Shown: piece after piece, positions 10,574-55,940 of the stretch
Layout of the letters: the number at the start of each line of letters is the position of its first letter
Numbering within the stretch: position 1 is the stretch's first letter
Assembly: GCA_016935095.1 (NCBI GenBank)
Contig: JAFGRO010000021.1
Coordinates: 1-64,000, forward strand
Source of the DNA: Candidatus Woesearchaeota archaeon
GTDB lineage: Archaea > Nanobdellota > Nanobdellia > Woesearchaeales > GW2011-AR15
Direction of reading: 5' to 3'
Length of the DNA stretch: 64,000 nucleotides
Translations under genes and position numbers: made by a program
The notes under the pieces: generated by a model
Told to the model about the DNA's origin: nothing
Seen by the model: only the letters and a program-made list of their open reading frames with translations
The model's database searches: none

Positions 10574-10586
10574 TTAAATTTATTAT

Positions 10587-16430: not shown

Positions 16431-16443
16431 ACATTGCAAAAAA

Positions 16444-17904: not shown

Positions 17905-17928
17905 TTTGCATTTGATAATTAATTTTAA

Positions 17929-17972: not shown

Positions 17973-17977
17973 TCAAA

Positions 17978-19345: not shown

Positions 19346-19415
19346 TAAGAAGAATGAATATATTACAAATTTATAAATTTATAATGCTTGTCCTGTATGC
19401 ACTTTACTTATAACT

Positions 19416-33039: not shown

Positions 33040-33110
33040 ATTAAATTTTGAATAATAAGAGTGAAAAATTTTAGATAAACTATTTATAAATCCAGCAATT
33101 CTCCTTATTT

Positions 33111-36945: not shown

Positions 36946-39371
36946 TTGTTATTCAAAATATGTTGAGGAATATATTTTTTTCCAACAAAAAACAATAAGT
37001 AAGGATATAGTTTTTTCTCATCATTTGCTTTAAAAATAACCTTTTCTCCTGTTACCTCAATTATATCAAGAAGTTCCAAGGCTTTTATCGCATAGGGGAA
37101 ATCATCAGCAATATCCTTGCCGTACATGTTTTTATAGTCTTTCCTTATTACAGAAAAATGCTCATAGGCAGAATGGGTTATAAATTTCACTTTAGCATAA
37201 TGCGGGGCAAATAAATGTATAGAATAAAAGAAATCTTTTTTATCAGGAGGAAAATTTTTACAGAACATGCTGTCTTTATTGTTTTTGTGCACGATTATAT
37301 ATCTAAATAAATTATTAATACATCCTTCCCCATAAAATCCAAGGGCAAAATTTGAATACGGCTCTGTCCTGTAATTTGTGTAAACATATTTAATTTTTCT
37401 CGGAGTCTGATTTTTAAGACAAAAATCCATCGGATGCACATAACTTAATTTAGAAGGGTCATCAAAATGAGTAAAATTATGTTTGTCTGATATTACAGGG
37501 ATTTCTTTAACAACAGCATCAAATAAAGGATAATAAAAATCAAGGAAATTCTTGAGCTTTCCATCATATCTCTTTTTAATATAATTATCATTGGTCTTGA
37601 TAGGGTAAAGCGATATTATGCTTGGCTTCATCTTAAGGATTTCCTCAAAAGTGTAAAGAAAATCTTTTGGAGAATCGCCTTTTAATCCAAGCAGGAGATC
37701 AACATTAAGATAGCCTATTTTTGTTTTTTTGAAATCAGAGATTGTCTTTTTTACTTTTTCAATTGTCTGATAGGGCCTGTTGTTTTTTTTAAGGACACTA
37801 GGGGATAGAGACTGCACGCCAATAGACAGTTTATTAAAACCAAAATTATCAATAATCTTCAGTTTTTCAAATGTGGTTGTATTCGGATTGAATTCTATGC
37901 CTCTTTCTGCATATTCATCAAATTCAAAATACCTGTAAATTGAGCTGATGTATTTTTTTAACTGGTCCTCCGACATTAAGCTTGGAGTGCCTCCTCCAAG
38001 AGACAATGCCTTGAATTTCAGTCCTTTAAACAGAGGCGAAAATAATTTCATGTCCTTGATTAAATAATCAATATAATCATCAATCTGTTTCCTGTCCTGC
38101 AAAGTTGTAGATGGATAAACACAATATGCGCATGTTGACTGGCAGAAGGGAAAATGAATATAAAAAGCAAGAAGATCAGGCTCAAGTCCTTTTTTCACCT
38201 TATCTGTAAATATCTTCCACCCCGTATATACAAATGACTTGTTTTTTAAGCCGATATTATTCATTAAAAAAAAGCTGTAAGTATCATATATATTATTTTT
38301 ATTCGGCTTATTCTTAATTGCCGTTTTAAATAATTCCAAATCTTTAATAACCTTATCATGAAATGAACCTGATTTCAATATATTATTATTTCCATGATTA
38401 TTTTCAGGAAGTCTGACTCCGGTATTATTCATTCTGGTCAGGATATCCTCTACTTCAATAAACACAGGATAAACTTCAGTTACTCCATGTACAGCAGCAT
38501 AATTCGGATTTATACCTGGGCATATATCTCTCAAAGTGCAGTGCCTGCATGCCTCTGCCTGAATATATTGCTTTTTTTCTTCAATCATTAAATTGTTTAT
38601 ATCCTCTGTGTCTTCTTTTGCAAAGTATGTTAAACGTTTTTCCTTTAAGCCTGAAAGCCTTACCTCTGTAGAAAATTCCTCAATTCCTGTCATATAGCAC
38701 AATGGAACTCTCTCAAGCCTGAAAGTAAGATTATTCTTTTTAATATAATCAATTGTTTCCCTGATATAACGCTCTGTCTCGGCTAATCCTGGCACAATCC
38801 ACTTGTTTTTTTTAGCGCGGCCGGCAGGATCTACAAAATTAAAACTAAAATGGGTTATATTAGGGAAATGTTTTCTTATAAACATAACATGGTTTTTCAG
38901 TTTTTTATAATTTAATTCATTAATGACAATCGTCATAAAAACATTAACATCATAATCAAGGACATTTTCTAAGCCCTGTAAAATTTTCTCATAATTATCT
39001 TTAGTAGAGAGTCTGTTGCAGACTTCTTTTTCATATGAATGAAATGAAAGGTTAAATTTTACATTGCCGTATGTTTTTATTTTTTTAACAAATTCCTGAG
39101 TCAAGTTAACACAGTTTGACTGGATTGTAATTTCTATGAAATCCTGTTTTTTAGCGAAATCAATTATCTTAAAAAGATCAGGATGAATAGTTGGTTCCCC
39201 TCCTGTAATAAAGAGGTCATTTGTTCCAAGTTTCCTCAATTTAATTATTCTTCTTTTTATTTCATCTAAACTAGGGTTATCCGGAGGCCCTTCCGGCACT
39301 GAGCAGAATATGCACTCCTGGTTGCATTCAGTGCTTATCTGCAGTCTTCCCGGTATGTGTCTGTATGTCAT
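36942..39371 (-). CDS. Bifunctional radical SAM fusion: N-terminal rSAM plus C-terminal HemN/CPO-like rSAM
   Basis: N-term 'STECNQECIFCSVPEG...LFITGGEPTIHPDL'; C-term 'FYIHFPFCQSTCAYCVYPSTTL...LSLGGGTPSLM...LSIGVQSLSPSVLKKNNRPY'. Confidence 0.9.
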   Translation of the reverse strand: MTYRHIPGRLQISTECNQECIFCSVPEGPPDNPSLDEIKRRIIKLRKLGTNDLFITGGEPTIHPDLFKIIDFAKKQDFIEITIQSNCVNLTQEFVKKIKTYGNVKFNLSFHSYEKEVCNRLSTKDNYEKILQGLENVLDYDVNVFMTIVINELNYKKLKNHVMFIRKHFPNITHFSFNFVDPAGRAKKNKWIVPGLAETERYIRETIDYIKKNNLTFRLERVPLCYMTGIEEFSTEVRLSGLKEKRLTYFAKEDTEDINNLMIEEKKQYIQAEACRHCTLRDICPGINPNYAAVHGVTEVYPVFIEVEDILTRMNNTGVRLPENNHGNNNILKSGSFHDKVIKDLELFKTAIKNKPNKNNIYDTYSFFLMNNIGLKNKSFVYTGWKIFTDKVKKGLEPDLLAFYIHFPFCQSTCAYCVYPSTTLQDRKQIDDYIDYLIKDMKLFSPLFKGLKFKALSLGGGTPSLMSEDQLKKYISSIYRYFEFDEYAERGIEFNPNTTTFEKLKIIDNFGFNKLSIGVQSLSPSVLKKNNRPYQTIEKVKKTISDFKKTKIGYLNVDLLLGLKGDSPKDFLYTFEEILKMKPSIISLYPIKTNDNYIKKRYDGKLKNFLDFYYPLFDAVVKEIPVISDKHNFTHFDDPSKLSYVHPMDFCLKNQTPRKIKYVYTNYRTEPYSNFALGFYGEGCINNLFRYIIVHKNNKDSMFCKNFPPDKKDFFYSIHLFAPHYAKVKFITHSAYEHFSVIRKDYKNMYGKDIADDFPYAIKALELLDIIEVTGEKVIFKANDEKKLYPYLLFFVGKKYIPQHILNNK

Positions 39372-40231
39372 TTTAGTGGTTTTAAATTACCTATCCCGAA
39401 TCTTTTTATATCATTTAAAAAAAAACCCTCACACTTATAAGATAAAGAGCAGCTCCTGCACATTGGAACCTTGACCTTGGGCTTTTCATGCTTAAAAGCA
39501 TTTTTAGGCATATTAATAAATTCATAATCTCTTCCAAAAACACAATAAGGGATATCATTAAATGAAATATTAGGGATATTATTTTTTATTTTAAACTCAA
39601 TTAATTCTCTCAGGTATTTTCCTAATTCTGCATAAGGCACACAGAAGGAGTAGCTTTTTACATCAGGATATAAGTGAGCCACATCAATGCCGAAATTTAC
39701 CGGATTAAAGCTCATTGCTAATTTTAAAATCCCTATCAAATCCTCCTTGTTTTGCTGTACCACAACTGTAAGCAATCTTAACTGGGATTTTCCTGCCTCA
39801 TTTATTAATTTAATCCCTCTTATTGCCTCATCAAAACTTCCTATAGCTTGAGTTACAGAATCATGTATCTCTGCATTTGATCCATATACCGGAATCCTGA
39901 AAGAAGTAACTCCTGCATCAATTAATTCAATTATTAAGCCTGAATTTTGACTTATTCTTCCGTGGGTGCATAATAATATTTGCTTAAATCCAATTTTTTT
40001 AATATATTTTATCATCGGCACTAATTTGTCATATTCAAGAGCATCATTTCCTGAAATATTTATATTTTCACAGCCCTGTTTTTTGTATTTAATAAGCTTT
40101 TTTGCAATAATAATTTCCTGATTTCTGATTCCTTCCGCTGTCAGCGGCCGTGTATATGTGTTCAGGCAAAAAACACACCTGTTTTTACAGCCGGGACTGA
40201 TAATAATTACACCTGTTTTAGGTTCAGCCAT
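39368..40231 (-). CDS. Radical SAM protein
   Basis: 'ISPGCKNRCVFCLNTYTRPL'; C-terminal 'CRSCSLSYKCEGFF'. Confidence 0.88.
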   Translation of the reverse strand: MAEPKTGVIIISPGCKNRCVFCLNTYTRPLTAEGIRNQEIIIAKKLIKYKKQGCENINISGNDALEYDKLVPMIKYIKKIGFKQILLCTHGRISQNSGLIIELIDAGVTSFRIPVYGSNAEIHDSVTQAIGSFDEAIRGIKLINEAGKSQLRLLTVVVQQNKEDLIGILKLAMSFNPVNFGIDVAHLYPDVKSYSFCVPYAELGKYLRELIEFKIKNNIPNISFNDIPYCVFGRDYEFINMPKNAFKHEKPKVKVPMCRSCSLSYKCEGFFLNDIKRFGIGNLKPLK

Positions 40232-41111
40232 TTTTCATATCCTCTTTAATAAAACAGAAGATTTCCTCATCTCCAAACTGTTCTATATAAGCTCTCCAGA
40301 CACCATCGCACATTTTATTATATTCACATCCTGAACATTTTCCCGGTTTAATTTTTGACTGTGTATAATAATCCTTATTGTCTTCCGGTTGCTTCAAGTC
40401 TGAAACCCAGTTTATAAAATCCTTTGCTATGCACAAGGGAAAATTCTCAATATATAAATTCTGAAAATCAAGCTCTTTTGCTTTTTCAAATGATTTTTTA
40501 ATAAAAGGCATTACCTCTGTATAAGAGACTGCCATTGTTGATCTGCCATCTTTTACACTTTCTCCTATTGGGTTCATAAATGCCAGCTGTATATAATTAA
40601 CACCTGTTTTTACCAAATGTTCAACAATAGCCGGCAAAGCCCGGTAATTAAGTCTGTGCACAACAGTATTAATATGGACTTTCTTATTGTGTTTAATAAT
40701 ATTTTTAATGCCTTTATTAACCAGTTCAAAAGAACCTTTTCTCCTGGAAACTGCATCATATCCTTTTTTATCCGGCGCAAAATAAGATACCTGGAAGACA
40801 TCCACACCAAGATTAATTAATTTTTTTACAAAATTTTCATAAGACATCAATAATGCATTGGTTGCAATTGAAATCCTGCTGTATTCACATGTTTTTTTTG
40901 CATATCCTATTATTTCAAACAGCCTTTTATGAATAGTCGGTTCACCCCCTGTAATAATCATGGAATCAAATTTCTTCCTGTTTTTTTTAATTCCGGCTAA
41001 AATTTCATTAAAATCAGGATCAGGCAAATTTCTCTTTTCCTGCGTATCACCGCAAAACAGACAGTTCATATTGCACTTGTGGTTCAATTCCAAAATATAA
41101 TGGCCTGTCAT
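40224..41111 (-). CDS. Radical SAM protein
   Basis: 'LNHKCNMNCLFCGDTQEKR', 'MIITGGEPTIHKRLFEIIGYAK'; C-terminal 'CSGCEYNKMCDGVW'. Confidence 0.9.
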   Translation of the reverse strand: MTGHYILELNHKCNMNCLFCGDTQEKRNLPDPDFNEILAGIKKNRKKFDSMIITGGEPTIHKRLFEIIGYAKKTCEYSRISIATNALLMSYENFVKKLINLGVDVFQVSYFAPDKKGYDAVSRRKGSFELVNKGIKNIIKHNKKVHINTVVHRLNYRALPAIVEHLVKTGVNYIQLAFMNPIGESVKDGRSTMAVSYTEVMPFIKKSFEKAKELDFQNLYIENFPLCIAKDFINWVSDLKQPEDNKDYYTQSKIKPGKCSGCEYNKMCDGVWRAYIEQFGDEEIFCFIKEDMKNG

Positions 41112-41142
41112 TTTTTAATCTGAAAATATTATTTAATTAATG

Positions 41143-42033
41143 CTATTTATATACAGGAAAAATCTCTGTAAAAAAACCTTCCTCAAAATATTTTTTGCAG
41201 ATTCCCATACAATTATTAATAAATATACAACCAATGCATTCTTTTACTTTTGTAAAATGTCCTTTATATGATTCAACGATAAATGAATCTGAAAATTCAG
41301 GAGCAATACATACAGGAAGCTTTTCAATATAAAAGGGAATATTTAGTTTTATGCAGTATTCAAGAACATCCCTGATTTTTGCTTTCAGTTCATCAAAAGG
41401 CACTGCAAGCTTTAAATCAATATCTTTTTTAGAGATTGGCATAAAACCTGAAAAATATATTCCTGAAACATTATAAGAGTTTAGCAAGTCTACTGTCTTA
41501 GAAAGATACTTCACATTTGATTTTGTGATGACTATATTTACATCAAATGGTATTTTCATCTCAGAAAGATTGGCAAACCCTTTTATCGTTTGTGCAAAAC
41601 TGCCTTTTGTCCTTGTAAGAGAGTCGTGAATCTCCTGGTTTGGACCGTGAATGGAGCACCTGATACAAAGATTTGGTATCTTTTTTAGGTCAGAAACAAA
41701 TTTGCGATAGCATAACATTCTTGCATTTGTTGTAAATGTAATAACCTTAAATTTGTCAGCACAATACTCAAGTATTTTAAAAAAACCCTTATGAAGTGTC
41801 GGTTCAGCCCCTCCTATTTCAATGCCTTTTTTTTTGTCTGCATTTGCATCTACCATATTTTTAATATTCTCAAGACTCAGGGATTGGTTATTTCGGACAT
41901 GGGCTGCTGAACAAAAAATACAATTGTTGTTGCACTTTTCAGTAATTCTAACCAGAAAATAATTCATGCAAGAATTATTCCTTTTTGTATAAATATTCAT
42001 AACTTTTTGCTTTTCAAAAATAGTATTTTCCAT
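41143..42033 (-). CDS. Radical SAM protein
   Basis: 'ITEKCNNNCIFCSAAHVRN', 'GIEIGGAEPTLHKGFF'; C-terminal 'CIGCIFINNCMGIC'. Confidence 0.9.
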   Translation of the reverse strand: MENTIFEKQKVMNIYTKRNNSCMNYFLVRITEKCNNNCIFCSAAHVRNNQSLSLENIKNMVDANADKKKGIEIGGAEPTLHKGFFKILEYCADKFKVITFTTNARMLCYRKFVSDLKKIPNLCIRCSIHGPNQEIHDSLTRTKGSFAQTIKGFANLSEMKIPFDVNIVITKSNVKYLSKTVDLLNSYNVSGIYFSGFMPISKKDIDLKLAVPFDELKAKIRDVLEYCIKLNIPFYIEKLPVCIAPEFSDSFIVESYKGHFTKVKECIGCIFINNCMGICKKYFEEGFFTEIFPVYK

Positions 42034-42035
42034 TT

Positions 42036-42956
42036 TTAATTTAAAATCTTTGTAATCTTTTTACCCTCTACCGGCCTGAATTCAAGGCTGCCGCGTTTTT
42101 CAGGATATTCTTTCCAGGGCCCTTCACAGATTAAATCATATCTGCATTTTTTACATTGAGAGAATTTCATTTTTCCCTCTTCTTTTCTTACTTTTTCCCA
42201 GTTTAATGTAACTGCATTAATATCCCTGATCTCTCCTTGTGGGATATAAAGTTCTGAAACATATTTTTCATAGCCTTTCATCACACAATAAGGCATTGCC
42301 TCTGCCATTACTTTTAAACCTGAACTGATACCTACCTGCAATCCCTTATGAATATAGGGGGCTGCCAAGCTGACGCACGGAACCATCTGGTCAAAATTTT
42401 TATGTGCATTTGCAATTGGATGTGGAAAGGCTAATTGAAACTGATTTACACCTAAATCAACAAGCATTTGTGCCATTTCAGGAAGATGCCTGTAGTTTGG
42501 CTTTACTACAACAGTATTTGTTACAGTATATATGTCAAGTTTCCTTATATTTTTTATTGCCTGATATGTCTGTTTAAAACTTCCAGGGCTTCTCGTGAGA
42601 TAATCATGCAATTCAGGAATATGGCCGTGTATAGCAGGCCCGAACTCATTCATGCCTGCATTAACAGCTTTTTTACTGAAATCCATATAACTGAATCTCC
42701 TGGCATTTGTCTGGACCTGGATTGTCATAAACTGCAGTTTTTTTGCATAGGTTAGTAATTCAAAAAAATCTTTTCTTATAGAGACTTCTCCTCCTGTAAA
42801 AACAACACCTGTACAGCCTGTTTTCCTGGCTTTTTTTAAGTCATTTACTATATCTTTCGTTGGTCTGTTGCCGAATTTCTTTTTATGCGCCTGGACACAG
42901 AACCTGCAGTTGTTATTGCAAAGAAATCCTGTCTTAATATCAACCCGCTTCCCCAT
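42036..42956 (-). CDS. Radical SAM protein
   Basis: 'TGFLCNNNCRFCVQAHKKK', 'GVVFTGGEVSIRKDFFELLTYAKK'; C-terminal 'CKKCRYDLICEGPW'. Confidence 0.9.
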   Translation of the reverse strand: MGKRVDIKTGFLCNNNCRFCVQAHKKKFGNRPTKDIVNDLKKARKTGCTGVVFTGGEVSIRKDFFELLTYAKKLQFMTIQVQTNARRFSYMDFSKKAVNAGMNEFGPAIHGHIPELHDYLTRSPGSFKQTYQAIKNIRKLDIYTVTNTVVVKPNYRHLPEMAQMLVDLGVNQFQLAFPHPIANAHKNFDQMVPCVSLAAPYIHKGLQVGISSGLKVMAEAMPYCVMKGYEKYVSELYIPQGEIRDINAVTLNWEKVRKEEGKMKFSQCKKCRYDLICEGPWKEYPEKRGSLEFRPVEGKKITKILN

Positions 42957-44821: not shown

Positions 44822-45454
44822 CTTGTGACTAAAGTCACAAGTATCCTTTAAGGGGCTCAAGCAACAGCGTGATGCTTTGCTTGGTTTAAAATGTATAAAA
44901 CAATATCATTCAGTTGGTTGTAGCCAACTGTTACTGCTGTTCCACCTCTGCTCCATAGATGTGTCCTTATGGATATCTTAAACGACCTTTTGGATGGTTT
45001 TTAAAGAATGAATAAGCAGAACAACCTTTAAGAAGTTGAAATGCTTTTTCATCAGTCATTCCTTTAGGAAAAGTAACTAAGGTATGAATGTGATCAGGCA
45101 TAACTGTTAAAACATGAATTTTAATGTTATGTCGTTTGGCTGCTTTGCGAATGCAAGCTTCGCAAAGTTTTTCATATTTGAAATTGGCAAACATATTATA
45201 ACGATATTTTGTCTGCCATGTCAAATGCCAAAAATTTATCCCAACTTTGTGGTTGTAATGTTCAAGTTCAATATTCACAAACTCCATTTTCGTTGCCTCC
45301 CGCAACGATTTTTTGGAGCTAACGCTAAAAAAATGTTAAAAAAAGTGCGCACGCCATTTTCGCTGCGTACTTTTTATTATTGAAAATGCTAAAAAAAAAT
45401 TTAACGGAGATAAGCAAGGCAATTCCCCTACAGACTAAAGTCTGTATGAGTATC
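44822..45454 (-). mobile_element. Decayed IS200/IS605-type element with palindromic ends
   Basis: Palindromes CTTGTGACTaaAGTCACAAG (44822-44841) and ACAGACTaaAGTCTGT (45430-45445), each followed by GTATCC, flank a truncated Y1 transposase ORF. Confidence 0.5.
44967..45305 (-). pseudogene. Truncated IS200-like (Y1/HUH) transposase TnpA
   Basis: 'HLTWQTKYRYNMFANFKYEKLCEACIRKAAKRHNIKIHVLTVMPDHIHTLVTFPKGM' includes the HUH motif (HIH); ORF ends before the expected catalytic Tyr region. Confidence 0.75.
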
Positions 45455-45455
45455 C

Positions 45456-48400
45456 TTGCCTAAGAAAATGAAATATGTCTTTTTTGTTGAAGGTAATAAT
45501 TGCTTAGGCCATATAACCAGGTGTTTAGTTCTTGCTGATTCAATAAAAAAAGCAGAGCCTGATTCAGAAATAGTTTTTCTTCTCAACTCAGAATTTACTT
45601 TGCCAATTGAGGAACAAAAATTCAGGTTTATTAAATTAAAATTTGATAATCCTGATATTACAAGCAAAGGGGGGAATTTACCTGAAAAATTTTCAAAATT
45701 TATCCTGCCGGCAATTATAGAAGAAAAACCTGATGTCCTTATTTTTGATACTTTTTTTTCTATAGATATTGTCAGGAATAAGCAATTGACAAATATAAAA
45801 AAGGTTTTGATTTTAAGGAAATATGAAGACAAGGAAATGAAAGTTTTTTTTAATTGTAATTTTTACAGAGACTTTGATTTAGTATTAGCGCCGCATGAAA
45901 GAAGAGAATTTGAAAATCTTGAAAAAGAATATTCTGTTAAACTAAATACCCTTGATTTTATCGGGCCCCTTGTAAAAGACACTGCTTTTGACAACTCATA
46001 TGATGATAAGAATAACAAAGGATTTAAAATATTAGCTTTGTGCGGCGGCGGAGGGTTTGATGATGCAGAGAAATTTGTGAATTCCTGTATGGATATATAT
46101 TATTTAACAAACAAGAAAATTGAAAATCTGAAATTTGAAATAATACCCGGGCCATTTAATAAGAGATTTGAAAATTTGAAAAATAAAAAAGAAACTAATC
46201 TTAAAATAAGCAGATATAAAACCAATGTCCTTAATTTAATGAATCAGGCTGACTTAATAATAAGCCAGGCAGGTTATAACACATCAAATGAAATTATTAT
46301 TGCAAAAACTCCTGCAATAATCATGCCTCTTATAATTGACTATGATGATCAGCTTGAAAGAGCACTGAATCTGGAAAAATCAGGAATAGCTAAAGTTGTA
46401 AAAGACTATAATGCAAATGCTGCTGCTGAAATTTGTATAGAGCTTGCATTGGATAGAACTAAACTTGAAATTATGGAAGAAAATTTTAAAAAAATTAAAT
46501 TTCATAGTGGAAATAAACAAGCTGCAGAGAAAATTATTAATTTAACTAAAATTAAAAAATATAAGTTAAGAATAAGTAATAAATGCAATAATAATTGCAT
46601 TTTCTGCAGATACTTAAACATTAAGGCTAATCATGAAAAAAGCTGTGATGAAATTAAAAAAGAACTGGAAGAATTAAAAGAAAAAAATATCACTGAGATT
46701 ATATTCCCCTGCAATTCCGAGATTAGGAAAGATTTTTTTGAATTGTTGGAATACACTAAGAGGTTAGGATTCAGAATAATTCTGGAATCCAATGGCAGGA
46801 TGTTTTTATATAGAGATTTTTATGAAAAAGTGGCTGACTATGTTAATAAATTTGAAATATTTCTAAATTCAGGTAGATCAGAAACCAATGATAAAATTAC
46901 GAATACAAAAGACACTTTTAATCAGACAATCCAGGGGATAAAGAATATTGAGGGGAATATTCAGGTCAATACAGTCATCACAAGATATAATTATATGCAT
47001 CTAAAAAATATTGCCTCGTTGGTAAAAAATTTAGGAGCTCAGGATATTAGGCTGATATTTCCTGTTTTGAAGAAGGAAAATGATCATATTCCAGAAGTTT
47101 TTGACTGCTATCAGAATATTGATGAAGCCATTGAGTATGCAAAAAGCATTGGACTGAACATCATAACTGGTGAACTGTTTTACAATCCTTTTATCCCTGA
47201 GGATCTGAATCTGGACTATGAAACCGCAGAGGTGATGTATGAATTTAAAATACCGCAAAATTCAGCAATTGTATTCAATAGGAACAAAATTGAAAGGACA
47301 AAGACGCTGATTTGGGAACTAACAGACACATGCAATTATGGTTGTTCTTATTGTACTTTAAATTTAAAAAGAAAGGAAAAAATAAGAATTAATGATTTTA
47401 AAGATGTAATAGAAGGATTAAAAAAACTTCAGGGCTCATGGAATATTGTGCTTTCCGGAGGAGAGCCATTGATTGTTGAAAATATTTCAGAGATAATAAA
47501 TGATATAATAAAGAAAACAAAGCACACAATATCCATTGTGACAAATCTTTCACTGGGTGCAGACAAAACAATGAAAATTTTGGATATTCCCAATGACAGA
47601 ATAGGTGAAATAACTGCCTCTTTACATTTGGAATACTGCAGCTATGATAATTTCCTGAAAAAAGCAAAAAAAATTAATAAGTTTCTCAGAAAAAAAGGCA
47701 AACAAATACATGTGGAATCTGTCGCGACAAAAGGAAACCTTGTAAAATTAAAAATGATTGGAAAAAAATTCATGAATAATGGAATTCATTTTCAACTTGA
47801 GCCTTTAAAAAAGAGTTATAATAACAAAGAGCATTACTTAAATTACGAAAGAAGTATTATTAAGGAATTCGGAAGAACCTATGGTTTAGATTCTGTAGAT
47901 TTTTCTAACAAAAGGTGTTACGCAGGCATGAATTATTTTGTAATAGATAGCAAAGGAAATGCTTACCAATGCCACTCTGCAATGAAAGACGGTTATGGTT
48001 CTAACGGTTATCTGGGTAATTTTCACGATAGTACGTTTAATCTATCAGAATCACCCACAAGATGCATTTACAACTGTTGTGCATGTATTGTTCCTTCTGA
48101 GGCAAATATGATAGAAAATCCTTTTGACAGCAAAGGAGACAAAAAAGAGATAAGCATAATAATTCCAACTTATAACAGAAAAGATGTATTAGAGGTTAGT
48201 TTAACTTCTTTATTTTATCTAAATTATCCTAAAAATAAATATGAAATCATTATTGTTGATGATGGGAGCGATGATAATACTGTTGAGATGATAAAAAAAC
48301 TTAAACCAAGCTGTAATCTAAATTATATATATTGGCCAAGAAAGAAGCCTTATAGTTTCGGAAAAGCTGGCAATAGAGCAGGACCTGCAAGAAATATTGG

Positions 48401-48962
48401 AGCCAAATATGCTTCAGGAGAAATACTTCTTTTCATAGATTCAGATATAATTGCTGATCCAGATATTTTACAAAATTTAATCAAAGGATTCAATACAAAT
48501 ATAGTCTTTCTGGGTGTAAGGAAAGAACTAAAAAAATATCCTTTTACTAAAGACAAGATAAAAAGATTATTAAAAGAAAATAAATTTAGAGTTAGTGAAG
48601 ATAAAGTTGAGTATACACGCGTAAGTAAGCTTCTTAAAAAATTCAATTTCAATATAATGAATCATGAATTTCCATGGTTTCTCTTGATCTCCTGTATAGT
48701 GTTCATGGATAAAAAATTATTTAATATGTATGGTGGATTTAGTAAGGATTTTGTATTCTGGGGATTTGAAGATCAGGAGTTTGCATACAGGCTCTCTAAA
48801 AACAAGGTTAAATTCAGTGTTAAAAAAAATGCTATTGGATATCATCAGCCACATGAAAAAGAATTTATCAACAAGGCAATATTTCTCAGAAATCAGGACA
48901 TTCAAAAAAATATTTTTTATAAAAAACATCTAGATAAGGATATATATGAATTATATGAGTAG
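45456..48962 (+). CDS. Four-module fusion: GT28/PseG-like glycosyltransferase, rSAM, rSAM/SPASM-like, GT2 glycosyltransferase
   Basis: N-term 'GNNCLGHITRCLVLADSIKK...LIISQAGYNTSNEIIIAKTPAIIMPL'; 'ISNKCNNNCIFCRYLN'; 'LTDTCNYGCSYCTLNLKRK...VLSGGEPLIVENI'; 'ISIIIPTYNRKDVLEVSLTSLFYLNYPKNKYEIIIVDDGSDDNT...FWGFEDQEFAYRL'. TTG at 45456 or ATG at 45468 as start. Confidence 0.88.
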   Translation: MPKKMKYVFFVEGNNCLGHITRCLVLADSIKKAEPDSEIVFLLNSEFTLPIEEQKFRFIKLKFDNPDITSKGGNLPEKFSKFILPAIIEEKPDVLIFDTFFSIDIVRNKQLTNIKKVLILRKYEDKEMKVFFNCNFYRDFDLVLAPHERREFENLEKEYSVKLNTLDFIGPLVKDTAFDNSYDDKNNKGFKILALCGGGGFDDAEKFVNSCMDIYYLTNKKIENLKFEIIPGPFNKRFENLKNKKETNLKISRYKTNVLNLMNQADLIISQAGYNTSNEIIIAKTPAIIMPLIIDYDDQLERALNLEKSGIAKVVKDYNANAAAEICIELALDRTKLEIMEENFKKIKFHSGNKQAAEKIINLTKIKKYKLRISNKCNNNCIFCRYLNIKANHEKSCDEIKKELEELKEKNITEIIFPCNSEIRKDFFELLEYTKRLGFRIILESNGRMFLYRDFYEKVADYVNKFEIFLNSGRSETNDKITNTKDTFNQTIQGIKNIEGNIQVNTVITRYNYMHLKNIASLVKNLGAQDIRLIFPVLKKENDHIPEVFDCYQNIDEAIEYAKSIGLNIITGELFYNPFIPEDLNLDYETAEVMYEFKIPQNSAIVFNRNKIERTKTLIWELTDTCNYGCSYCTLNLKRKEKIRINDFKDVIEGLKKLQGSWNIVLSGGEPLIVENISEIINDIIKKTKHTISIVTNLSLGADKTMKILDIPNDRIGEITASLHLEYCSYDNFLKKAKKINKFLRKKGKQIHVESVATKGNLVKLKMIGKKFMNNGIHFQLEPLKKSYNNKEHYLNYERSIIKEFGRTYGLDSVDFSNKRCYAGMNYFVIDSKGNAYQCHSAMKDGYGSNGYLGNFHDSTFNLSESPTRCIYNCCACIVPSEANMIENPFDSKGDKKEISIIIPTYNRKDVLEVSLTSLFYLNYPKNKYEIIIVDDGSDDNTVEMIKKLKPSCNLNYIYWPRKKPYSFGKAGNRAGPARNIGAKYASGEILLFIDSDIIADPDILQNLIKGFNTNIVFLGVRKELKKYPFTKDKIKRLLKENKFRVSEDKVEYTRVSKLLKKFNFNIMNHEFPWFLLISCIVFMDKKLFNMYGGFSKDFVFWGFEDQEFAYRLSKNKVKFSVKKNAIGYHQPHEKEFINKAIFLRNQDIQKNIFYKKHLDKDIYELYE

Positions 48963-49185: not shown

Positions 49186-51885
49186 TCATGATAGGAATAT
49201 ACCTGGTTTTGCCAAAGGATCCATAGCATCGTACCTTCCATTGACAAGTTTTGCCGCAAACCTGCATCCTCCAAGACAACCATTTAAGTATTTGCACTCC
49301 TTGCATCTGTCCGGAAAGACCTTCAATTTTCTTATGTCTGCAGATAAACCGCAGGTCCAAGCTTTTTCTAATGGATCATTCAATATTCTTCCTATCTCTT
49401 CATTAATAGAATAACAGGGTTTGATATTGCCGGAAGGATCAATAACAAGCTTATCAAATATTCCGCATATAGTTGCGCCTTTTGAAAAAAGTTTTACCTT
49501 CTCAGGTTCATATGCACAAAAAGGGATTCCGTCAACAAATATTTCATCATACCTTTTAGTCAATAAAAGAAGCTTTTCAATCAATATCCTAACATCATCA
49601 TTGTCAATAGGCATCTTATTATCAGCTGTCGGTACAGGCCTTGCCAAGAACCATTCAACCTCCATTTCACCTATCAGCCTGAAATATTTTTCCAGCTGAT
49701 AAATATTGTCCTTTATCAAGACAGTGTTTAGCCTAAAAGGAATATTGTTTTTATTAAGAGAAGTAATTAGCTTTTTTTTGAAAGAGACTTCATCCTGGTT
49801 TAGAGAATGAAACGGCAGAAGCATATAATCAACAATGCCCCTCAGTGCGGAAAAATCATTGATAAGTGTGCCATTAGTGTTAACCAAAGTATATAGTGAT
49901 TTAGATTTGGCATATTTCAATATTTCATATAAATCTTTCCTAAGAAATGGCTCACCTCCTGTGAATCTAATGTTCCTGACTCCTGAACTTGCGATTTTAT
50001 CAATAATATCAAATATCTTTTTTTTCGGTAAATCTGGCAGGTTTCTTGAAAAACTATTCTTATTATAACAGAAATTGCATTTAAGATTGCATCTGGAAGT
50101 TATTTCAAACTTGATTTCGTATGGTTTGTCAATTATGGAGATGTTTTTGTTTTTATCTATCTTTACCAATTCTTTATATATTCCAGGATGAGGATGAACC
50201 ACCTTGACCTCAATTTTTTCAACATCTGGCAATGAATAAATAGTCTCAAGAAGAGTCTCAGCATTTATAATGGTTAAAGGCAATATTATAGACACCTCCT
50301 TTCCTAGAGAAACAATATTTTTTAAGCCAGTTATGGATTGAGATAATGTATTTTCTGTATCTGTCATAAAATCATTAATTTTATTATTCACTGCCGTAAA
50401 AAGAACAAAATAAAAATTATCTACAAAATCAGCTGTCTTTTCACAAAATTGTCTATAACAAAACATTCGTCCATTTGTATACAAACTAATATTGAATCCC
50501 TGCCCTTTAGCAAAAGCCAGAATATCAACGAAGTCTTTTCTGATATCTGCATTGCAGGGAAATATAATTTCTGAAATACCCTTTTTCTTAAGATCTACAA
50601 TTTCCTTTCTTATATCCTCATAAGATTTGTCAAATAGTTCTTTGTCACCAAAGTCCGTGCAAAAAGTGCAATTATTATTGCAGATACTTCCACATTTAAT
50701 CAAAGCAGGCTCAGTATAGGTATCTTGAAGAGAATTTTCATTTATTCCCTGTTCTTCAGATAAAGTATTTTCTTTTAAGTGTATTTGCTGTATTGCTCCG
50801 ATGGAGCAGACTTCTAGACAGCACAAACATTGTATGCATTTTTTTTTATTAATAATATATTTTCCGTGAGACTTTTTAATAGCATCTGCAGGGCAGGATT
50901 TAATACACGCACCACATAATTTACATTTTTCAGTAATCCATAATTCAAATGATTCTGTCGTTTTATTCAGCATTTTTTTATAAGATGAATGCTTCTTAAA
51001 TGAATCTATTGCTTGCAATCTCTGACCATAAATTTTTATTTTTCTAAAGTCATTAGTACCAAACCCCCGAAGTGCTGCATATCTTGATGTTAATATTTTG
51101 GAAGGTGTGTGTCCTGTTAATTTTGATGCGACTGTATCAATGGCCACAGCATCTTCTGATGTAATAATATAGCCTATCTTAACTGGTAAACCTGTTGTAG
51201 GACCTCCCTCGCCTTCCATTGCAACAACTGCATCCATAATATTAAGCTTTATCTTAGGCCGGATAAAAGAAAAAACATCAACGATTGCCTGATTGAAGTC
51301 TGTTATATCCTTGATTAGACTGTCCAAGCATTTCCTTCCTTCAGGAGATAAAAAACCAATACAGTTTTTTATCGCACCTGTCAAATATGTTATTGAATGG
51401 GACTTGAGTTTTGGAAGATTTATTATTACATCCGCATCAAAATATGCTTCTGCAAAACCTGTTTTATTCAGTACCACACTATCTTTAATATATTTTTCCA
51501 CAAATCCTTCATACTGAAAATCCCTGAAAGAGGAATTAGTATCCTGGATAATTTTTTTAATTCCTGTCTTTTCAATGGCCTCTTTGGGGCTTCCTGAAAG
51601 AGTTGATGCTGTCTGTTCGCCAACATAAACATAAGGCGTGATTTCTTTTACCAGTTCTATGACTGCTCTAATTAAAAGTGGATGAGTAACTGCAGCTTTT
51701 TCAGGAGTTCTGCAAGTACATATATTCGGTTTTATAAGTACTTTATCTTTTTGTTTTACATATTTATTCAATCCTCCAAGCAAATCTAAGGATTTTTGGA
51801 TAGCTTTTTTTATATTCTTATATCCATCACATTTCACTAATGCTAAATCTGACATCATGATATTGTTAATACATGTTTTATCCAT
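49186..51885 (-). CDS. Multi-domain fusion: DUF362, 2x[4Fe-4S] ferredoxin, rSAM, rSAM/SPASM
   Basis: DUF362-like 'KVLIKPNICTCRTPEKAAVTHPLLIRAVIELVKEI...DVIINLPKLKSHSITYLTGAIKNCIGFL'; ferredoxin 'CKLCGACIKSCPADAI...CIQCLCCLEVCSIGAI'; rSAM 'CNNNCTFCTDFG'; rSAM 'CNLKCNFCYNKN...NIRFTGGEPFLRKDLYEIL'; C-terminal SPASM-like 'CKECKYLNGCLGGCRFAA'. Confidence 0.9.
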   Translation of the reverse strand: MDKTCINNIMMSDLALVKCDGYKNIKKAIQKSLDLLGGLNKYVKQKDKVLIKPNICTCRTPEKAAVTHPLLIRAVIELVKEITPYVYVGEQTASTLSGSPKEAIEKTGIKKIIQDTNSSFRDFQYEGFVEKYIKDSVVLNKTGFAEAYFDADVIINLPKLKSHSITYLTGAIKNCIGFLSPEGRKCLDSLIKDITDFNQAIVDVFSFIRPKIKLNIMDAVVAMEGEGGPTTGLPVKIGYIITSEDAVAIDTVASKLTGHTPSKILTSRYAALRGFGTNDFRKIKIYGQRLQAIDSFKKHSSYKKMLNKTTESFELWITEKCKLCGACIKSCPADAIKKSHGKYIINKKKCIQCLCCLEVCSIGAIQQIHLKENTLSEEQGINENSLQDTYTEPALIKCGSICNNNCTFCTDFGDKELFDKSYEDIRKEIVDLKKKGISEIIFPCNADIRKDFVDILAFAKGQGFNISLYTNGRMFCYRQFCEKTADFVDNFYFVLFTAVNNKINDFMTDTENTLSQSITGLKNIVSLGKEVSIILPLTIINAETLLETIYSLPDVEKIEVKVVHPHPGIYKELVKIDKNKNISIIDKPYEIKFEITSRCNLKCNFCYNKNSFSRNLPDLPKKKIFDIIDKIASSGVRNIRFTGGEPFLRKDLYEILKYAKSKSLYTLVNTNGTLINDFSALRGIVDYMLLPFHSLNQDEVSFKKKLITSLNKNNIPFRLNTVLIKDNIYQLEKYFRLIGEMEVEWFLARPVPTADNKMPIDNDDVRILIEKLLLLTKRYDEIFVDGIPFCAYEPEKVKLFSKGATICGIFDKLVIDPSGNIKPCYSINEEIGRILNDPLEKAWTCGLSADIRKLKVFPDRCKECKYLNGCLGGCRFAAKLVNGRYDAMDPLAKPGIFLS

Positions 51886-52119: not shown

Positions 52120-52512
52120 CTAGTAGCTTGCATGGCTGCCGTGGCTGCTGTGGCTACCGTGGCTGCTGTGGCTGCCGTGGCTGCTGTGGCTGCTGTGGCT
52201 GCCGTGGCTGCCGTGGCTGCCGTGGCTGCCGTGACTGCTGTGACTGCCGTGACTGGCGTGACTGGCGTGGCTGCTGTGGCTGGCGTGATGTGTGTGTGTT
52301 GCTGTGACTGTACAGGACGTGGCTGTACAACTTCCCCCCAATACAATCGTTCCTGCTTTTACCTCTTTTGCACTCAGAACAGCTGAAATTGCCGCTGTGC
52401 CAATAAAAGTTCCAAGAGTAAATAAAGAATGCTTTGATATATTCCCCTCTTCATTCATTATAAAAGAAGATATTTTTTTCTTAATTTTAGGCAACACGCT
52501 CTTTTTTGGCAA
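52120..52512 (-). CDS. hxsA-like: His-Xaa-Ser repeat precursor peptide (HxsA-like)
   Basis: '...MNEEGNISKHSLFTLGTFIGTAAISAVLSAKEVKAGTIVLGGSCTATSCTVTATHTH' followed by 18 consecutive H-[AGS]-S triplets and a terminal Tyr; adjacent to an HxsB-like rSAM. Confidence 0.85.
   Translation of the reverse strand: MPKKSVLPKIKKKISSFIMNEEGNISKHSLFTLGTFIGTAAISAVLSAKEVKAGTIVLGGSCTATSCTVTATHTHHASHSSHASHASHGSHSSHGSHGSHGSHGSHSSHSSHGSHSSHGSHSSHGSHASY
52126..52287 (-). repeat. 9-nt tandem repeat (18 units) encoding (His-Xaa-Ser)18
   Basis: Consensus CAC-[GC/AG/GC]N-AGC on the minus strand; GC-rich block in an AT-rich window. Confidence 0.95.
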
Positions 52513-52595: not shown

Positions 52596-54014
52596 TCACA
52601 GCTTATAAGGGGTTTTTAATTTTCCTTTTTTAAGATTTTCATTAAATTTAGTGTCAAAAATAATCTTTTCAAATAAATAATCAAACTGTCCTTTTAAAAT
52701 CCTGCACCTGAAATCTGTTGCAAGCTTCGGGATCAGGTTTCCTGTGGACATATAACAGTTTACAGGGCACAAACCACAATAAGGCTGGTATGTACATGAA
52801 TTGCACAAACAGGCATCATTAACAGATGATGAAATTAAGCTACATGTTTTCTCAGAACATAGGACTTCCCTATAACTGTTTTCAAAAACAGTACCAAGCT
52901 TAAAAATTTCTTCACCAACCATCCGTCCTTCATCACAACTGTAAATACTGCCATTAAACTGGTAAGCCAGCTGGCCAATTGCCGCGCCGCAGGGACTCAT
53001 CAAATCTAAGTACATAGGATCTTCTTTAGTCATGATTTTCAATAACATGTATAAACTCGAAACCTCGATTATATTATCTTGCAAATAAACATAATCAATT
53101 ATTTTTTTCCAGAATTCAAGATATTCCTCTGGAGAGTATGAGATTTTTTTCCATATATTTAATGCATATCCAAGATTATTAAGGAATCTGATCCATAATC
53201 TGGATAGTTTTAAACTCTGATATGCATCAATTATTTCCATAGGGTATTTTAAAGAATTTTTAGTAGTAACCATCAATGCATTTATACCTATTTTATTTCT
53301 TTTTTTTATTGCTTTTATCCATTTTATTACATCAGGATAAGAGCTTCCCCTGTTTAATAATTTCCTGTTGAAATCATGTACTATTTTCGGCCCGTCTAAT
53401 GAAGTGCATATACCAACTTTATTATCTTCTAAAAATTTCAGGATTTCATCATTCATCAAGGTTAGGTTAGTTACAATTGAAAACCTTAAATCTTTCTTAT
53501 ATTCTGAATTGAGCTTTTTAGCATAATTTATAATGAATTTTACAATATCAAAATTAACCAGAGGCTCGCCTCCCTGGAATTCAATTGTAAGGGCATTTGA
53601 AGGGGCCTGAAAAATAAATTCAACTGTTTTTTGAGCTGTTATTTTGTCCATATCATATTCTTTTTTAGATATGTGTTTAGAGGCTGAATGGCAATAAACG
53701 CATGCCATATTGCATCTAAGTGTTACTACAATTATATGCAGTGATGTTCCCTGAAAAAGCTGCCTTTTTTTCCTTTTATAAGAGTCTACAATCATGTCAA
53801 AATTATTTTTAGTTAGAATAATTCCCTTTTCTTCCAGATTGAGATATAATTCTTCAGTTAGAGTATGCCCCATTAGTTTTGCATATTCTTCTCTTTTCAG
53901 AGCAGCCCAAGAGCCGGAATCTGTCACTATTAAAATCCTGTCCCTGATTTTTTTGGTCTTAATATTATTCAGCTTATAATCAGAAAGAATTTTTCTCCCG
54001 TTAATAAATTGCAT
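52596..54014 (-). CDS. hxsB: Radical SAM/SPASM maturase, HxsB-like (His-Xaa-Ser system)
   Basis: 'TSLHIIVVTLRCNMACVYCHSASKHISKKEYDMDKITAQKTVEFIFQAPSNALTIEFQGGEPLVNFDIVKFII'; SPASM-like 'CLCNSCTYQPYCGLCPVNCY'. Confidence 0.85.
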   Translation of the reverse strand: MQFINGRKILSDYKLNNIKTKKIRDRILIVTDSGSWAALKREEYAKLMGHTLTEELYLNLEEKGIILTKNNFDMIVDSYKRKKRQLFQGTSLHIIVVTLRCNMACVYCHSASKHISKKEYDMDKITAQKTVEFIFQAPSNALTIEFQGGEPLVNFDIVKFIINYAKKLNSEYKKDLRFSIVTNLTLMNDEILKFLEDNKVGICTSLDGPKIVHDFNRKLLNRGSSYPDVIKWIKAIKKRNKIGINALMVTTKNSLKYPMEIIDAYQSLKLSRLWIRFLNNLGYALNIWKKISYSPEEYLEFWKKIIDYVYLQDNIIEVSSLYMLLKIMTKEDPMYLDLMSPCGAAIGQLAYQFNGSIYSCDEGRMVGEEIFKLGTVFENSYREVLCSEKTCSLISSSVNDACLCNSCTYQPYCGLCPVNCYMSTGNLIPKLATDFRCRILKGQFDYLFEKIIFDTKFNENLKKGKLKTPYKL

Positions 54015-54252
54015 TTTGCATTAATCCTAATACATAATTATAAAAGTCATAACCTAAATTATTTATATCAATTTCTTTGGATTTAGGCTTTAAATTTACT
54101 GAAATTTGGTCATTCTTGTCTCCGTCCATAAATATCCAGCAGCTTTCAGTAAAGTCCTTAGAAGCAGCTAAAATTGCAGCAAAACCATAAAACCTTGTAT
54201 CAAAATTCAGTTTAACTTCATTCTTTTTTTTGTCAATAATAAGTTTATTCAT
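54001..54252 (-). CDS. Second HxsD-like protein (short, ~83 aa; start re-assigned to ATG at 54252)
   Basis: 'NFDTRFYGFAAILAASKDFTESCWIFMDGDKNDQISVNLKPKSKEIDINNLGYDFYNYVLGLMQ' aligns with the upstream HxsD-like protein. The ORF-track N-terminus is out-of-frame read-through of hxsD1. Confidence 0.65.
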   Translation of the reverse strand: MNKLIIDKKKNEVKLNFDTRFYGFAAILAASKDFTESCWIFMDGDKNDQISVNLKPKSKEIDINNLGYDFYNYVLGLMQNAIY

Positions 54253-54778
54253 TGTCATTGCATGAATCACTTTCGTCCTTTTCCTGATCTTTGCCATATT
54301 TTTCTTCCCAGGGCACTGCAATTCCAAGAGGATCATCAATATAATCCAGACCATCACTATCTGAATCATCATCATTTGTATCAACTTTATCATCGTCTGA
54401 ACCTGGCTCTTCAAATTCATCAATCAGATTGGTTGCAAGTGCTTTGCTAACAATTGCTTCTTTCACAGGTCTTGTTTTTTCTGAATTGATACTAAAAACA
54501 GCATAGTTAAGAAGTTCATTATTAAAATCCCTTCCAAGAGATTCAATATCCTGTGGATTTTTAGGCCTGAGCTCTACAATGATTTCTTCTTCGGGATCTC
54601 CTCCTAATAAGATATATGCCCTGTCTAAAAAAATATAACATGCAGAATAAACAATGTCCAGTGGATAAAAAACAGGATTCACCGAAACTGCTACATAACC
54701 CTCTTCATCATGTAACTCAAGATTGTCTATTTTTCTTGTTTTGAAAGAAGATTCTTCTGAACTCATTTTCCCCCCCAC
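54245..54778 (-). CDS. hxsD: HxsD-like protein with acidic C-terminal extension
   Basis: 'VSVNPVFYPLDIVYSACYIFLDRAYILLGGDPEEEIIVELRPKNPQDIESLGRDFNNELLNYAVFSINSEKTRPVKEAIVSKAL' resembles the HxsD family (incl. LLN-Y motif). Confidence 0.8.
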   Translation of the reverse strand: MGGKMSSEESSFKTRKIDNLELHDEEGYVAVSVNPVFYPLDIVYSACYIFLDRAYILLGGDPEEEIIVELRPKNPQDIESLGRDFNNELLNYAVFSINSEKTRPVKEAIVSKALATNLIDEFEEPGSDDDKVDTNDDDSDSDGLDYIDDPLGIAVPWEEKYGKDQEKDESDSCNDNE

Positions 54779-54803: not shown

Positions 54804-55940
54804 TTAATTTATAAAGCTTTCCAATAATTGTCTGAGAAATATTAAAAAATTTCCCCTGCACAGCAAGGTGATAATTACGCCTATGAACATGGATACGGCA
54901 AAGTGAATCTTTTCATGTATAAAGATAATATGCTCTTTAATTTTTCCTCCTGAATGCAGAGTATTTATCTTTTTTACATCTTCTTTTGTAAGGGACTTGT
55001 AATTATCAAGGATAGTCTCCTTTTTCTGGAATGCTTCAAAAATACTATTAACAAATGAAATTGAGGTTTCTTTTTTTTTAGTGTATTCTCCCTTACTTTC
55101 AATTATATCCTCTGCCAGGCACATTCCCTGCTTTAATGATTCAATATAAATTGGTTTTGAAAAAGCAATAAAAGAGAGATTTAAGACAAAATATCTCAGC
55201 AAAACAAAGAAGAGAAACAGCATTAAGAAATTTATTAAAAAAGTTAAGCTAAATATATTCTGAAAATCAAACACAAATCTGATAATCGAGAGCAAGAATC
55301 CTATTGCTGTCATATTAATATTCAGAATATTTGTAAAGAAAAGCATTAATATCAAAATAAATATTACATTGAATACCATTGTTGACTGTATTTTCAGGAA
55401 TTGTAATACTGCTGTGGTTATTGTATAAAATCCAAAAAGGAATATTGCCGAGCTGAACAAAAATTTCGGGTCTAATACAAGTATAAATTGTCTCAACAGA
55501 ATCTTAAATTTTATTTTAAAGATTATTTTTACTATAAAATACAAAAAAACAGGGGTGACTGTGTTTATAAGGAGGATATAAGACGGAAAATACCCTGTAT
55601 TGCCCCATTTATAAACTGATAACGGCACAAGCGCGGCATAAGCTAAAAATAATTTTGCATCTCCGGGAGCCCAGAGATTAGAGAGCCATAAAAAAAATCC
55701 AAAAACCAATGAGATCAGGATATTAATAAAATAGATTTTTATATAGTCTATATTTATTTCTGTCCCTTTACTCTTTAAATAGAAAATAGCAATGAGCAGG
55801 CTTAATACAGAGCTTAAAATTGCAATAACAACCCATTTGTTCCTGATTTTATTGTATTTCAGGTCCTGGTAAGAGGTTATTATTCCAAAGACAATAATTA
55901 TTATAATATTTATTGATTCAAATATTGTAAAATAATCCAT
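54804..55940 (-). CDS. A24 family prepilin peptidase-like membrane protein
   Basis: First Asp region 'FGIITSYQDLKYNKIRNKWVV'; second 'LWAPGDAKLFLAYAALVPL' (GxGD-like); multi-pass. Confidence 0.75.
   Translation of the reverse strand: MDYFTIFESINIIIIIVFGIITSYQDLKYNKIRNKWVVIAILSSVLSLLIAIFYLKSKGTEINIDYIKIYFINILISLVFGFFLWLSNLWAPGDAKLFLAYAALVPLSVYKWGNTGYFPSYILLINTVTPVFLYFIVKIIFKIKFKILLRQFILVLDPKFLFSSAIFLFGFYTITTAVLQFLKIQSTMVFNVIFILILMLFFTNILNINMTAIGFLLSIIRFVFDFQNIFSLTFLINFLMLFLFFVLLRYFVLNLSFIAFSKPIYIESLKQGMCLAEDIIESKGEYTKKKETSISFVNSIFEAFQKKETILDNYKSLTKEDVKKINTLHSGGKIKEHIIFIHEKIHFAVSMFIGVIITLLCRGNFLIFLRQLLESFIN

What the first reader, a model, noticed from the sequence alone, without database searches (positions are those of the whole stretch)
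45456..48962. 1168-aa four-module protein: GT28-like / rSAM / rSAM / GT2
One uninterrupted frame carries an N-terminal GT28/PseG-like domain, two rSAM cores (CNNNCIFC ~46.58 kb; CNYGCSYC ~47.33 kb) with SPASM-like cysteines, and a C-terminal GT2 with 'WGFEDQEFAYRL'. Two glycosyltransferases covalently linked to two rSAM modules suggests coupled sugar transfer and radical modification. I know of no named family with this architecture.
Basis: partly seen in the sequence, partly recalled or inferred. Interest (0 to 1): 0.83.

Follow-up and report, generated by a model that had tools for sequence, protein, structure and literature searches.

The report
Four-part sugar-transferase / radical-SAM fusion protein
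A Woesearchaeota-type archaeon encodes one protein that joins two sugar-transferring enzymes to two radical-chemistry modules beside a peptide-modification cluster; the exact layout was found only in this genome, but similar fusions recur in related archaea and in at least one bacterium, which points to an undescribed family of modular glycan- or peptide-tailoring enzymes.

Summary
Window 45456-48962 (+) is one open frame; its likely start is the ATG at 45468, giving 1164 aa. Its order is GT28-type GT-B glycosyltransferase, HxsC-like radical SAM module, second radical SAM module with SPASM-like cysteines, and GT2 glycosyltransferase. The first radical SAM module keeps CNNNCIFC, but its GGE motif reads PCN and it lacks auxiliary-cluster cysteines, so only the second looks fully equipped. 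The gene lies 3.2 kb from a genuine Hxs (His-Xaa-Ser) peptide cassette: HxsA4, HxsB, HxsD-like and an archaeal prepilin peptidase. It sits among nine HxsC-like modules in 18 kb. The full chain occurs in no other of 353 genomes of the order, but GT28/GT2/radical-SAM fusions recur in at least eight of them and in an Omnitrophota bacterium. In one, an HxsA precursor sits next to a 1999-aa radical-SAM/GT2 protein. My best reading is a multi-step tailoring enzyme that glycosylates and radically modifies a cell-surface product, most likely HxsA or a glycan tied to it. The enzyme classes are well supported; the substrate is inferred. New variant of a known kind.

The parts
45468..48962 (+). GT28 / HxsC-like rSAM / rSAM-SPASM-like / GT2 fusion protein, 1164 aa from ATG (TTG alternative at 45456)
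45468..46541 (+). Module 1: GT28-type GT-B glycosyltransferase (LGHITRC near the N-terminus, AGYNTSNEI in the C-domain)
   Evidence: Pfam Glyco_tran_28_C; alignments A1/A4; PDB and fold matches are GT-B glycosyltransferases
46548..47270 (+). Module 2: HxsC-like radical SAM module; CNNNCIFC at 46584-46607, GGE replaced by PCN at 46707-46715, no auxiliary-cluster cysteines
   Evidence: high-confidence core in AlphaFold model
47280..48134 (+). Module 3: radical SAM with CNYGCSYC (47331-47354), intact GGE (47457-47465) and SPASM-like cysteines up to CIYNCCAC (48063-48086)
48150..48866 (+). Module 4: GT2 glycosyltransferase, DDGSDD / DSD / WGFEDQE (48759 onward) intact; nearest solved relative is chondroitin polymerase K4CP
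45415..45460 (+). Strong hairpin directly upstream of the start codon, single copy in the genome; possibly a remnant of an IS200-type element end
44967..45305 (-). Partial IS200-like Y1 transposase
   Evidence: Pfam Y1_Tnp 58 bits, profile positions 8-88 of 121
49186..51885 (-). DUF362 + 2x[4Fe-4S] + HxsC-like rSAM (PCN variant, 46% identical to module 2) + second rSAM
52120..52512 (-). HxsA4 His-Xaa-Ser repeat precursor, leader ...NEEG|NISKHSLF..., 18 HxS
   Evidence: NCBIfam NF038313 66.1 bits, cut-off 55; alignment A5
52596..54014 (-). HxsB radical SAM/SPASM maturase
   Evidence: TIGR03978 429 bits, cut-off 370
54001..54423 (-). HxsD-like protein
   Evidence: NF038315 at its cut-off, 41 bits
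54245..54778 (-). HxsD (marginal)
   Evidence: TIGR03976 49.6 bits against cut-off 50
54804..55940 (-). Archaeal A24 prepilin peptidase
   Evidence: Pfam Arc_PepC 34.2 bits, cut-off 23.4
36942..42956 (-). Five genes with HxsC-like rSAM modules (one fused to a HemN-type rSAM)
31030..35138 (+). Two B12-type rSAM proteins carrying C-terminal HxsC-like fragments without the CX3CX2C triad

Best explanation
The protein is a multi-step tailoring enzyme of an expanded Hxs island. Shown: two glycosyltransferase modules (GT28-type GT-B and GT2-type GT-A) with intact signature motifs, a fully equipped radical SAM/SPASM-like module (rSAM-2), and an HxsC-like radical SAM module (rSAM-1) with an altered SAM-binding motif. 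Inferred: the GT modules add two sugars in sequence to one acceptor; rSAM-2 makes a radical change on that sugar or on the peptide it is attached to; rSAM-1 mainly docks the substrate or partner modules. The acceptor is most likely HxsA, a Ser/His-rich peptide with a prepilin-like leader that HxsB and the other HxsC-like modules also modify, or a glycan attached to it. Fusing the modules would keep the intermediate on one scaffold.
For: Modules and motifs. All nine HxsC-like modules reported in this genome lie between 32.6 and 50.7 kb on this contig, next to a genuine HxsA4/HxsB/HxsD-like cassette. Independent case: in L061 an HxsA4-like precursor (2-295) sits next to an HxsC-like rSAM and a 1999-aa rSAM-SPASM-GT2-GT2-DUF2334-B12rSAM protein whose GT2 is the closest one found to the window's (40%). 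In G232 the Hxs cassette lies about 14 kb from a GT28-GT4-rSAM-SPASM-PaaK protein. The close GT28 clade occurs in 7 of 353 genomes; 6 of these hold an HxsB-like protein of at least 350 bits against about 58 of 353 overall (hypergeometric p about 1e-4; 0.0015 genus-collapsed). Six of the seven clade members lie beside or within GT2-rSAM fusions, and the seventh is itself fused to a degenerate HxsC-like module. An archaeal prepilin peptidase gene accompanies nearly every Hxs cassette seen, and 11 HxsA leaders share ExG|xI[ST]K followed by a hydrophobic stretch.
Against: The gene is on the opposite strand to the Hxs cassette and convergent with its neighbour, so it is not in the same operon. Two same-genus genomes have the Hxs island without this protein, so it is accessory. 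In four genomes with related GT28/GT2-rSAM loci the HxsB gene is on another contig, and related loci carry polysaccharide-type genes (DegT, deacetylase, PaaK). Two of the six HxsB matches (358.6 and 366.7 bits) fall just under the 370 cut-off. Hxs chemistry itself has no experimental characterisation that I found. No biochemistry was possible.
Confidence: 0.42

Rival explanations
1. The protein builds a surface polysaccharide or lipid-linked glycan with no HxsA involvement. Both GTs extend the glycan, and rSAM-2 epimerises, dehydrogenates or otherwise modifies one of its sugars. Its position in the Hxs island reflects clustering of rSAM genes in a variable locus.
For: Related loci carry PaaK/CapK-like ligases, a DegT aminotransferase, DUF2334/polysaccharide deacetylase domains and Asn-synthase-type proteins. 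One of the two closest standalone relatives of rSAM-2 directly adjoins a GT2-like gene (L020). The nearest solved GT2 is a chondroitin polymerase.
Against: rSAM-1 belongs with HxsC-like modules, all of which in this genome cluster beside HxsA/HxsB. HxsA adjacency recurs in L061, and HxsB is enriched in genomes with the GT28 clade.
Confidence: 0.33
2. The radical SAM modules are no longer catalytic. The protein is a bifunctional glycosyltransferase held together by two TIM-barrel scaffolds, and HxsC-like modules in general serve as docking domains.
For: rSAM-1 has lost GGE (PCN). HxsC-like modules without the CX3CX2C triad occur in GT28, GT2 and B12-rSAM fusions (L063/L082, L031/L064, window 31030 and 33111). 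Motif departures are commoner in fused (13/45) than standalone modules (5/47).
Against: rSAM-2 keeps CNYGCSYC, GGE and a set of SPASM-like cysteines. Both cores keep the three cluster cysteines. The motif difference is marginal (p 0.036) and the sequences are not independent.
Confidence: 0.15
3. The frame is an assembly chimera or a recent accidental gene fusion caused by the adjacent IS200-type element, without a selected joint function.
For: The exact chain was found only in this genome. A partial IS200 transposase and a strong hairpin lie directly upstream. The genome is a fragmented assembly of 82 contigs.
Against: The frame is open for 1168 codons. Junction types recur elsewhere: GT28-(degenerate) rSAM-1 in L063/L082, rSAM-1-rSAM-2 in the 899-aa protein of this genome, rSAM-GT2 in L030, L031, L061, L062 and L064.
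Confidence: 0.07

Closest known systems
His-Xaa-Ser (Hxs) system: HxsA/HxsB/HxsC/HxsD (NCBIfam TIGR03976-03978, NF038313; predicted by Haft and Basu, cited in PMC9062424)
   Same: A genuine HxsA4, HxsB and HxsD(-like) set lies next to the gene; rSAM-1 is HxsC-like; nine HxsC-like modules lie in one 18-kb stretch.
   Different: I found no described Hxs system with glycosyltransferases fused to radical SAM modules; none of the HxsC-like modules reaches the HxsC cut-offs.
Mycofactocin (MftC radical SAM + MftF GT2; PMC7491314, PMC3023750)
   Same: A ribosomal peptide product matured by a radical SAM enzyme and oligo-glycosylated by MftF.
   Different: There the activities are separate proteins acting on a small redox cofactor; here two GTs and two rSAM modules are one chain. 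The window GT2 scores 63 bits against MftF (cut-off 280).
Chondroitin polymerase K4CP/KfoC (PDB 2z86, 2z87)
   Same: Nearest solved relative of the GT2 module by sequence and by fold.
   Different: K4CP is a polysaccharide polymerase without radical SAM modules; about 24-26% identity over the GT2 module.
MurG / GT28 and macrolide-type GT-B glycosyltransferases
   Same: N-terminal module shares the fold and the C-terminal domain.
   Different: Scores far below the MurG cut-off (59.5 against 250); belongs to a small clade that neighbours or joins radical SAM modules.
Modular GT-rSAM proteins of other Woesearchaeota and of Omnitrophica RIFOXYA2_FULL_38_17 (found here, not named as such in any library searched)
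   Same: Same modules (GT28, GT2, rSAM, SPASM) in other orders, sometimes with GT4, PaaK, DegT, DUF2334 or B12-rSAM.
   Different: None has GT28-rSAM-rSAM-GT2 in one chain.

Membership tests
Hxs (His-Xaa-Ser) system, as a locus | HxsA-type precursor with His-Xaa-Ser repeats | tested here: met
   NF038313 66.1 bits, cut-off 55; 18 HxS
Hxs (His-Xaa-Ser) system, as a locus | HxsB radical SAM/SPASM maturase | tested here: met
   TIGR03978 429 bits, cut-off 370
Hxs (His-Xaa-Ser) system, as a locus | HxsC radical SAM maturase | tested here: not met
   Several HxsC-like proteins, best 119.8 bits against cut-off 267.9 (TIGR03977) and 152.3 against 500 (NF038332)
Hxs (His-Xaa-Ser) system, as a locus | HxsD | tested here: inconclusive
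   TIGR03976 49.6 bits against cut-off 50; HxsD-like NF038315 exactly at its cut-off of 41
Radical SAM superfamily (rSAM-1) | CX3CX2C triad | tested here: met
   CNNNCIFC
Radical SAM superfamily (rSAM-1) | GGE SAM-binding motif | tested here: not met
   PCN at the aligned position, shared with the 899-aa neighbour
Radical SAM/SPASM-type (rSAM-2) | CX3CX2C triad and GGE | tested here: met
   CNYGCSYC and GGE
Radical SAM/SPASM-type (rSAM-2) | C-terminal auxiliary-cluster cysteines of the SPASM type | tested here: inconclusive
   Cysteines present (CYAG ... QCHS ... CIYNCCAC), but no Pfam SPASM match and low model confidence there
GT28 glycosyltransferases | GT28 C-terminal domain, GT-B fold | tested here: met
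   PF04101 47.9 bits, cut-off 22; Foldseek to GT-B enzymes
GT2 glycosyltransferases | GT-A domain with DD, DxD and ED motifs | tested here: met
   PF00535 90.6 bits; DDGSDD, DSD, WGFEDQE present
PseG | Match above the family cut-off | tested here: not met
   TIGR03590 50.9 bits against 153.55
Mycofactocin biosynthesis | MftC/MftF-type proteins above cut-off | tested here: not met
   MftC 68.4 against 265, MftF 63.3 against 280
Hxs substrate relationship | The protein acts on HxsA | not testable with these tools
   needs biochemistry

The most novel reading that the evidence does not exclude
HxsC-like radical SAM folds have become portable docking modules that bring many different enzymes (glycosyltransferases, DUF362-ferredoxin proteins, HemN- and B12-type radical SAM enzymes) to one leader-bearing surface peptide. 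That would make an assembly-line-like system for glycosylated, radically modified, prepilin-type surface peptides in Woesearchaeota, with its GT/rSAM part shared with at least one Omnitrophota bacterium.
Probability: 0.18. Interest if true: 0.88.

Novelty: new variant of a known kind. Interest (0 to 1): 0.64.

Why it matters
Radical SAM enzymes and glycosyltransferases meet in a few pathways (mycofactocin, some antibiotics), but I know of no described case in which two of each are covalently joined. The recurrence of differently ordered GT/rSAM chains in related archaea and in a bacterium, with one chain beside an HxsA precursor in a second genome, suggests an undescribed modular class. It also ties the uncharacterised Hxs system to glycosylation and, through the linked prepilin peptidase, to surface export. 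That gives concrete, testable substrates for a peptide system that was predicted from sequence but still has no known product.

Tried and rejected
PseG-type hydrolase for module 1: rejected. Full-chain homologues among 353 genomes of the order: none. Literature on Hxs function or on GT-rSAM fusions: only prediction-level mentions of Hxs and separate rSAM/GT genes. Mis-assembly: not excluded, but judged unlikely because junction types recur. A full-length alignment for structure prediction put the GT28 fragments in the wrong place, so two partial models were made instead. These support the folds of GT28 and of the rSAM-1 core but not the SPASM-like tail or the relative domain positions. The upstream hairpin is single-copy in the genome, so it gives no family of repeats. 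Repeat-rich precursors in the GT-rSAM loci without Hxs: none found by simple repeat counting.
Full report
What is there. The frame at 45456-48962 (+) is open for 1168 codons; the ATG at 45468 is the likelier start. Pfam finds a GT28 C-terminal domain, two radical SAM stretches and a GT2 domain in that order, each family above its curated cut-off. Module 1 is a GT-B glycosyltransferase. It scores 59.5 bits against MurG and 50.9 against PseG, both far below cut-off, and its sequence and fold neighbours are GT-B glycosyltransferases rather than PseG. Module 4 is a GT2 with the expected acidic motifs; its nearest solved relative by sequence and by fold is chondroitin polymerase.

The two radical SAM modules differ. 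rSAM-1 keeps CNNNCIFC but reads PCN where GGE is expected, and it has no C-terminal cysteines for an auxiliary cluster. It resembles the HxsC family, and the same PCN variant occurs in the 899-aa neighbour, 46% identical over this module. rSAM-2 has CNYGCSYC, GGE and a SPASM-like cysteine tail. It scores best against the STM4011 family but well below cut-off, and one of its two closest standalone relatives adjoins a GT2-like gene. AlphaFold, with a shallow alignment, gives high confidence for the rSAM-1 core (per-block pLDDT mostly above 85) and good confidence for much of the GT28 module. Confidence is middling for rSAM-2 and GT2 and low for the SPASM-like tail. Relative domain positions should not be read from these models.

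Setting. The gene lies in an Hxs island. A genuine HxsA4 precursor (66.1 bits, cut-off 55), HxsB (429, cut-off 370), HxsD at about its cut-off and an archaeal A24 prepilin peptidase occupy 52.1-55.9 kb on the minus strand. Nine HxsC-like stretches, including those in the two tandem proteins and two fragments on B12-rSAM proteins, lie between 32.6 and 50.7 kb; no other contig of the genome gave one at E 1e-5. None reaches the HxsC cut-offs. The gene is on the other strand from the cassette and converges with its 899-aa neighbour. A partial IS200-type transposase and a strong single-copy hairpin lie just upstream.

Distribution. No other of 353 genomes of the order has the full chain. Related fusions recur there: rSAM-GT2-rSAM with SPASM next to GT28-GT4 and DegT-rSAM-SPASM (L030); rSAM-GT2 with a degenerate C-terminal HxsC-like module, next to GT28 with a long, apparently coiled-coil tail (L031, L064); rSAM-GT2 next to GT28-GT4-rSAM-SPASM-PaaK and GT28-rSAM-SPASM (L062); GT28 with a degenerate HxsC-like module (L063/L082); GT28-GT4 near rSAM-GT2 (L065); GT2-rSAM and HxsC-HxsB (L037); and a 1999-aa rSAM-SPASM-GT2-GT2-DUF2334-B12rSAM frame that reaches the contig end (L061). 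An Omnitrophica bacterium (L079) has GT28, GT2-rSAM, rSAM-GT28-rSAM-SPASM and GT4-rSAM-SPASM-PaaK genes in a row, with an HxsC-like gene nearby. Two domains of life therefore hold the module set.

Link to HxsA. In L061 an HxsA4-like precursor sits at the contig start, an HxsC-like gene follows, and then the 1999-aa protein, whose GT2 is the closest to the window's (40%). In G232 the cassette HxsA-HxsB-HxsD-prepilin peptidase is about 14 kb from the GT28-GT4-rSAM-SPASM-PaaK gene, with further rSAM genes between. The close GT28 clade (at least 330 bits) is in seven genomes, six of which have an HxsB-like protein of at least 350 bits; two of those scores, 358.6 and 366.7, are just below the 370 cut-off. 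Against about 58 of 353 genomes this gives p about 1e-4, or 0.0015 after collapsing to genera; the background counts are my own tally of the listed scores. Of these six, the window genome and G232 have GT locus and HxsB on one contig; in the other four (G049, G012, G098, G103) HxsB is on a different contig.

HxsA itself. Eleven HxsA-type precursors share a basic start, ExG|xI[ST]K and a hydrophobic stretch, and many end in Ser-Tyr. A prepilin-peptidase gene stands next to HxsD/HxsB in nearly every cassette examined; L040, a short contig end, is the exception I saw. I infer that HxsA is processed and exported like a prepilin; no tool here tests this.

Mechanism. Shown by sequence: two GT modules and one radical SAM module with intact motifs, and a second radical SAM module with an altered motif. 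Inferred: serial sugar transfer by the two GTs, radical modification by rSAM-2, docking by rSAM-1, and HxsA or a glycan on it as acceptor. The docking idea rests on degenerate HxsC-like modules in several fusions and on a marginal excess of motif departures in fused (13/45) over standalone (5/47) modules, Fisher p 0.036, with related sequences counted separately. A surface-glycan pathway without HxsA is the strongest rival, because related loci carry PaaK, DegT and deacetylase genes.

Verdict. The exact chain is a singleton, but the class it belongs to is recurrent and, as far as the searches here reach, undescribed. I score it as a new variant of a known kind.

Noticed in passing
54804-55940, and L165-L172, L032, L041, L068, L069: An archaeal A24 prepilin-peptidase gene sits beside HxsD/HxsB/HxsA in nearly every Hxs cassette examined, and the HxsA leaders look prepilin-like (ExG|xI[ST]K + hydrophobic stretch). 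This suggests HxsA is exported as a pilin-like surface peptide.
   Followed up: partly
L079 (Omnitrophica WOR_2 RIFOXYA2_FULL_38_17, MHHG01000029.1) 4265-20769: A bacterial cluster with the same GT28 / GT2-rSAM / GT4-rSAM-SPASM-PaaK modules plus Asn-synthase-type genes and an HxsC-like rSAM; points to transfer between Woesearchaeota and Omnitrophota.
   Followed up: partly
L077 10001-14569 and L079 4265-7777: PaaK/CapK-like adenylate-forming domain at the C-terminus of GT-rSAM-SPASM chains in an archaeon and a bacterium.
   Followed up: partly
49186-51885; L035 10298-13219; L072 6714-8486; L038 3077-4708: DUF362-ferredoxin proteins recur near HxsC-like modules, some fused to intact, PCN-variant or degenerate HxsC-like rSAM domains.
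   Followed up: partly
31030-35138: Two tandem B12-type rSAM paralogues end in HxsC-like fragments lacking the cluster cysteines; they may be docking remnants.
   Followed up: no
44967-45460: Partial IS200-type transposase and a -20 kcal/mol hairpin immediately upstream of the fusion gene; the hairpin is single-copy in the genome.
   Followed up: partly
36942-39371; L067 1267-3615; L070 2604-4823; L066 4995-6956: HxsC-like modules fused to HemN-type radical SAM domains in several genomes, in both domain orders.
   Followed up: no
57787-59487 and L074 12766-14472: NodU-type carbamoyltransferase near rSAM-rich islands in two genomes.
   Followed up: no
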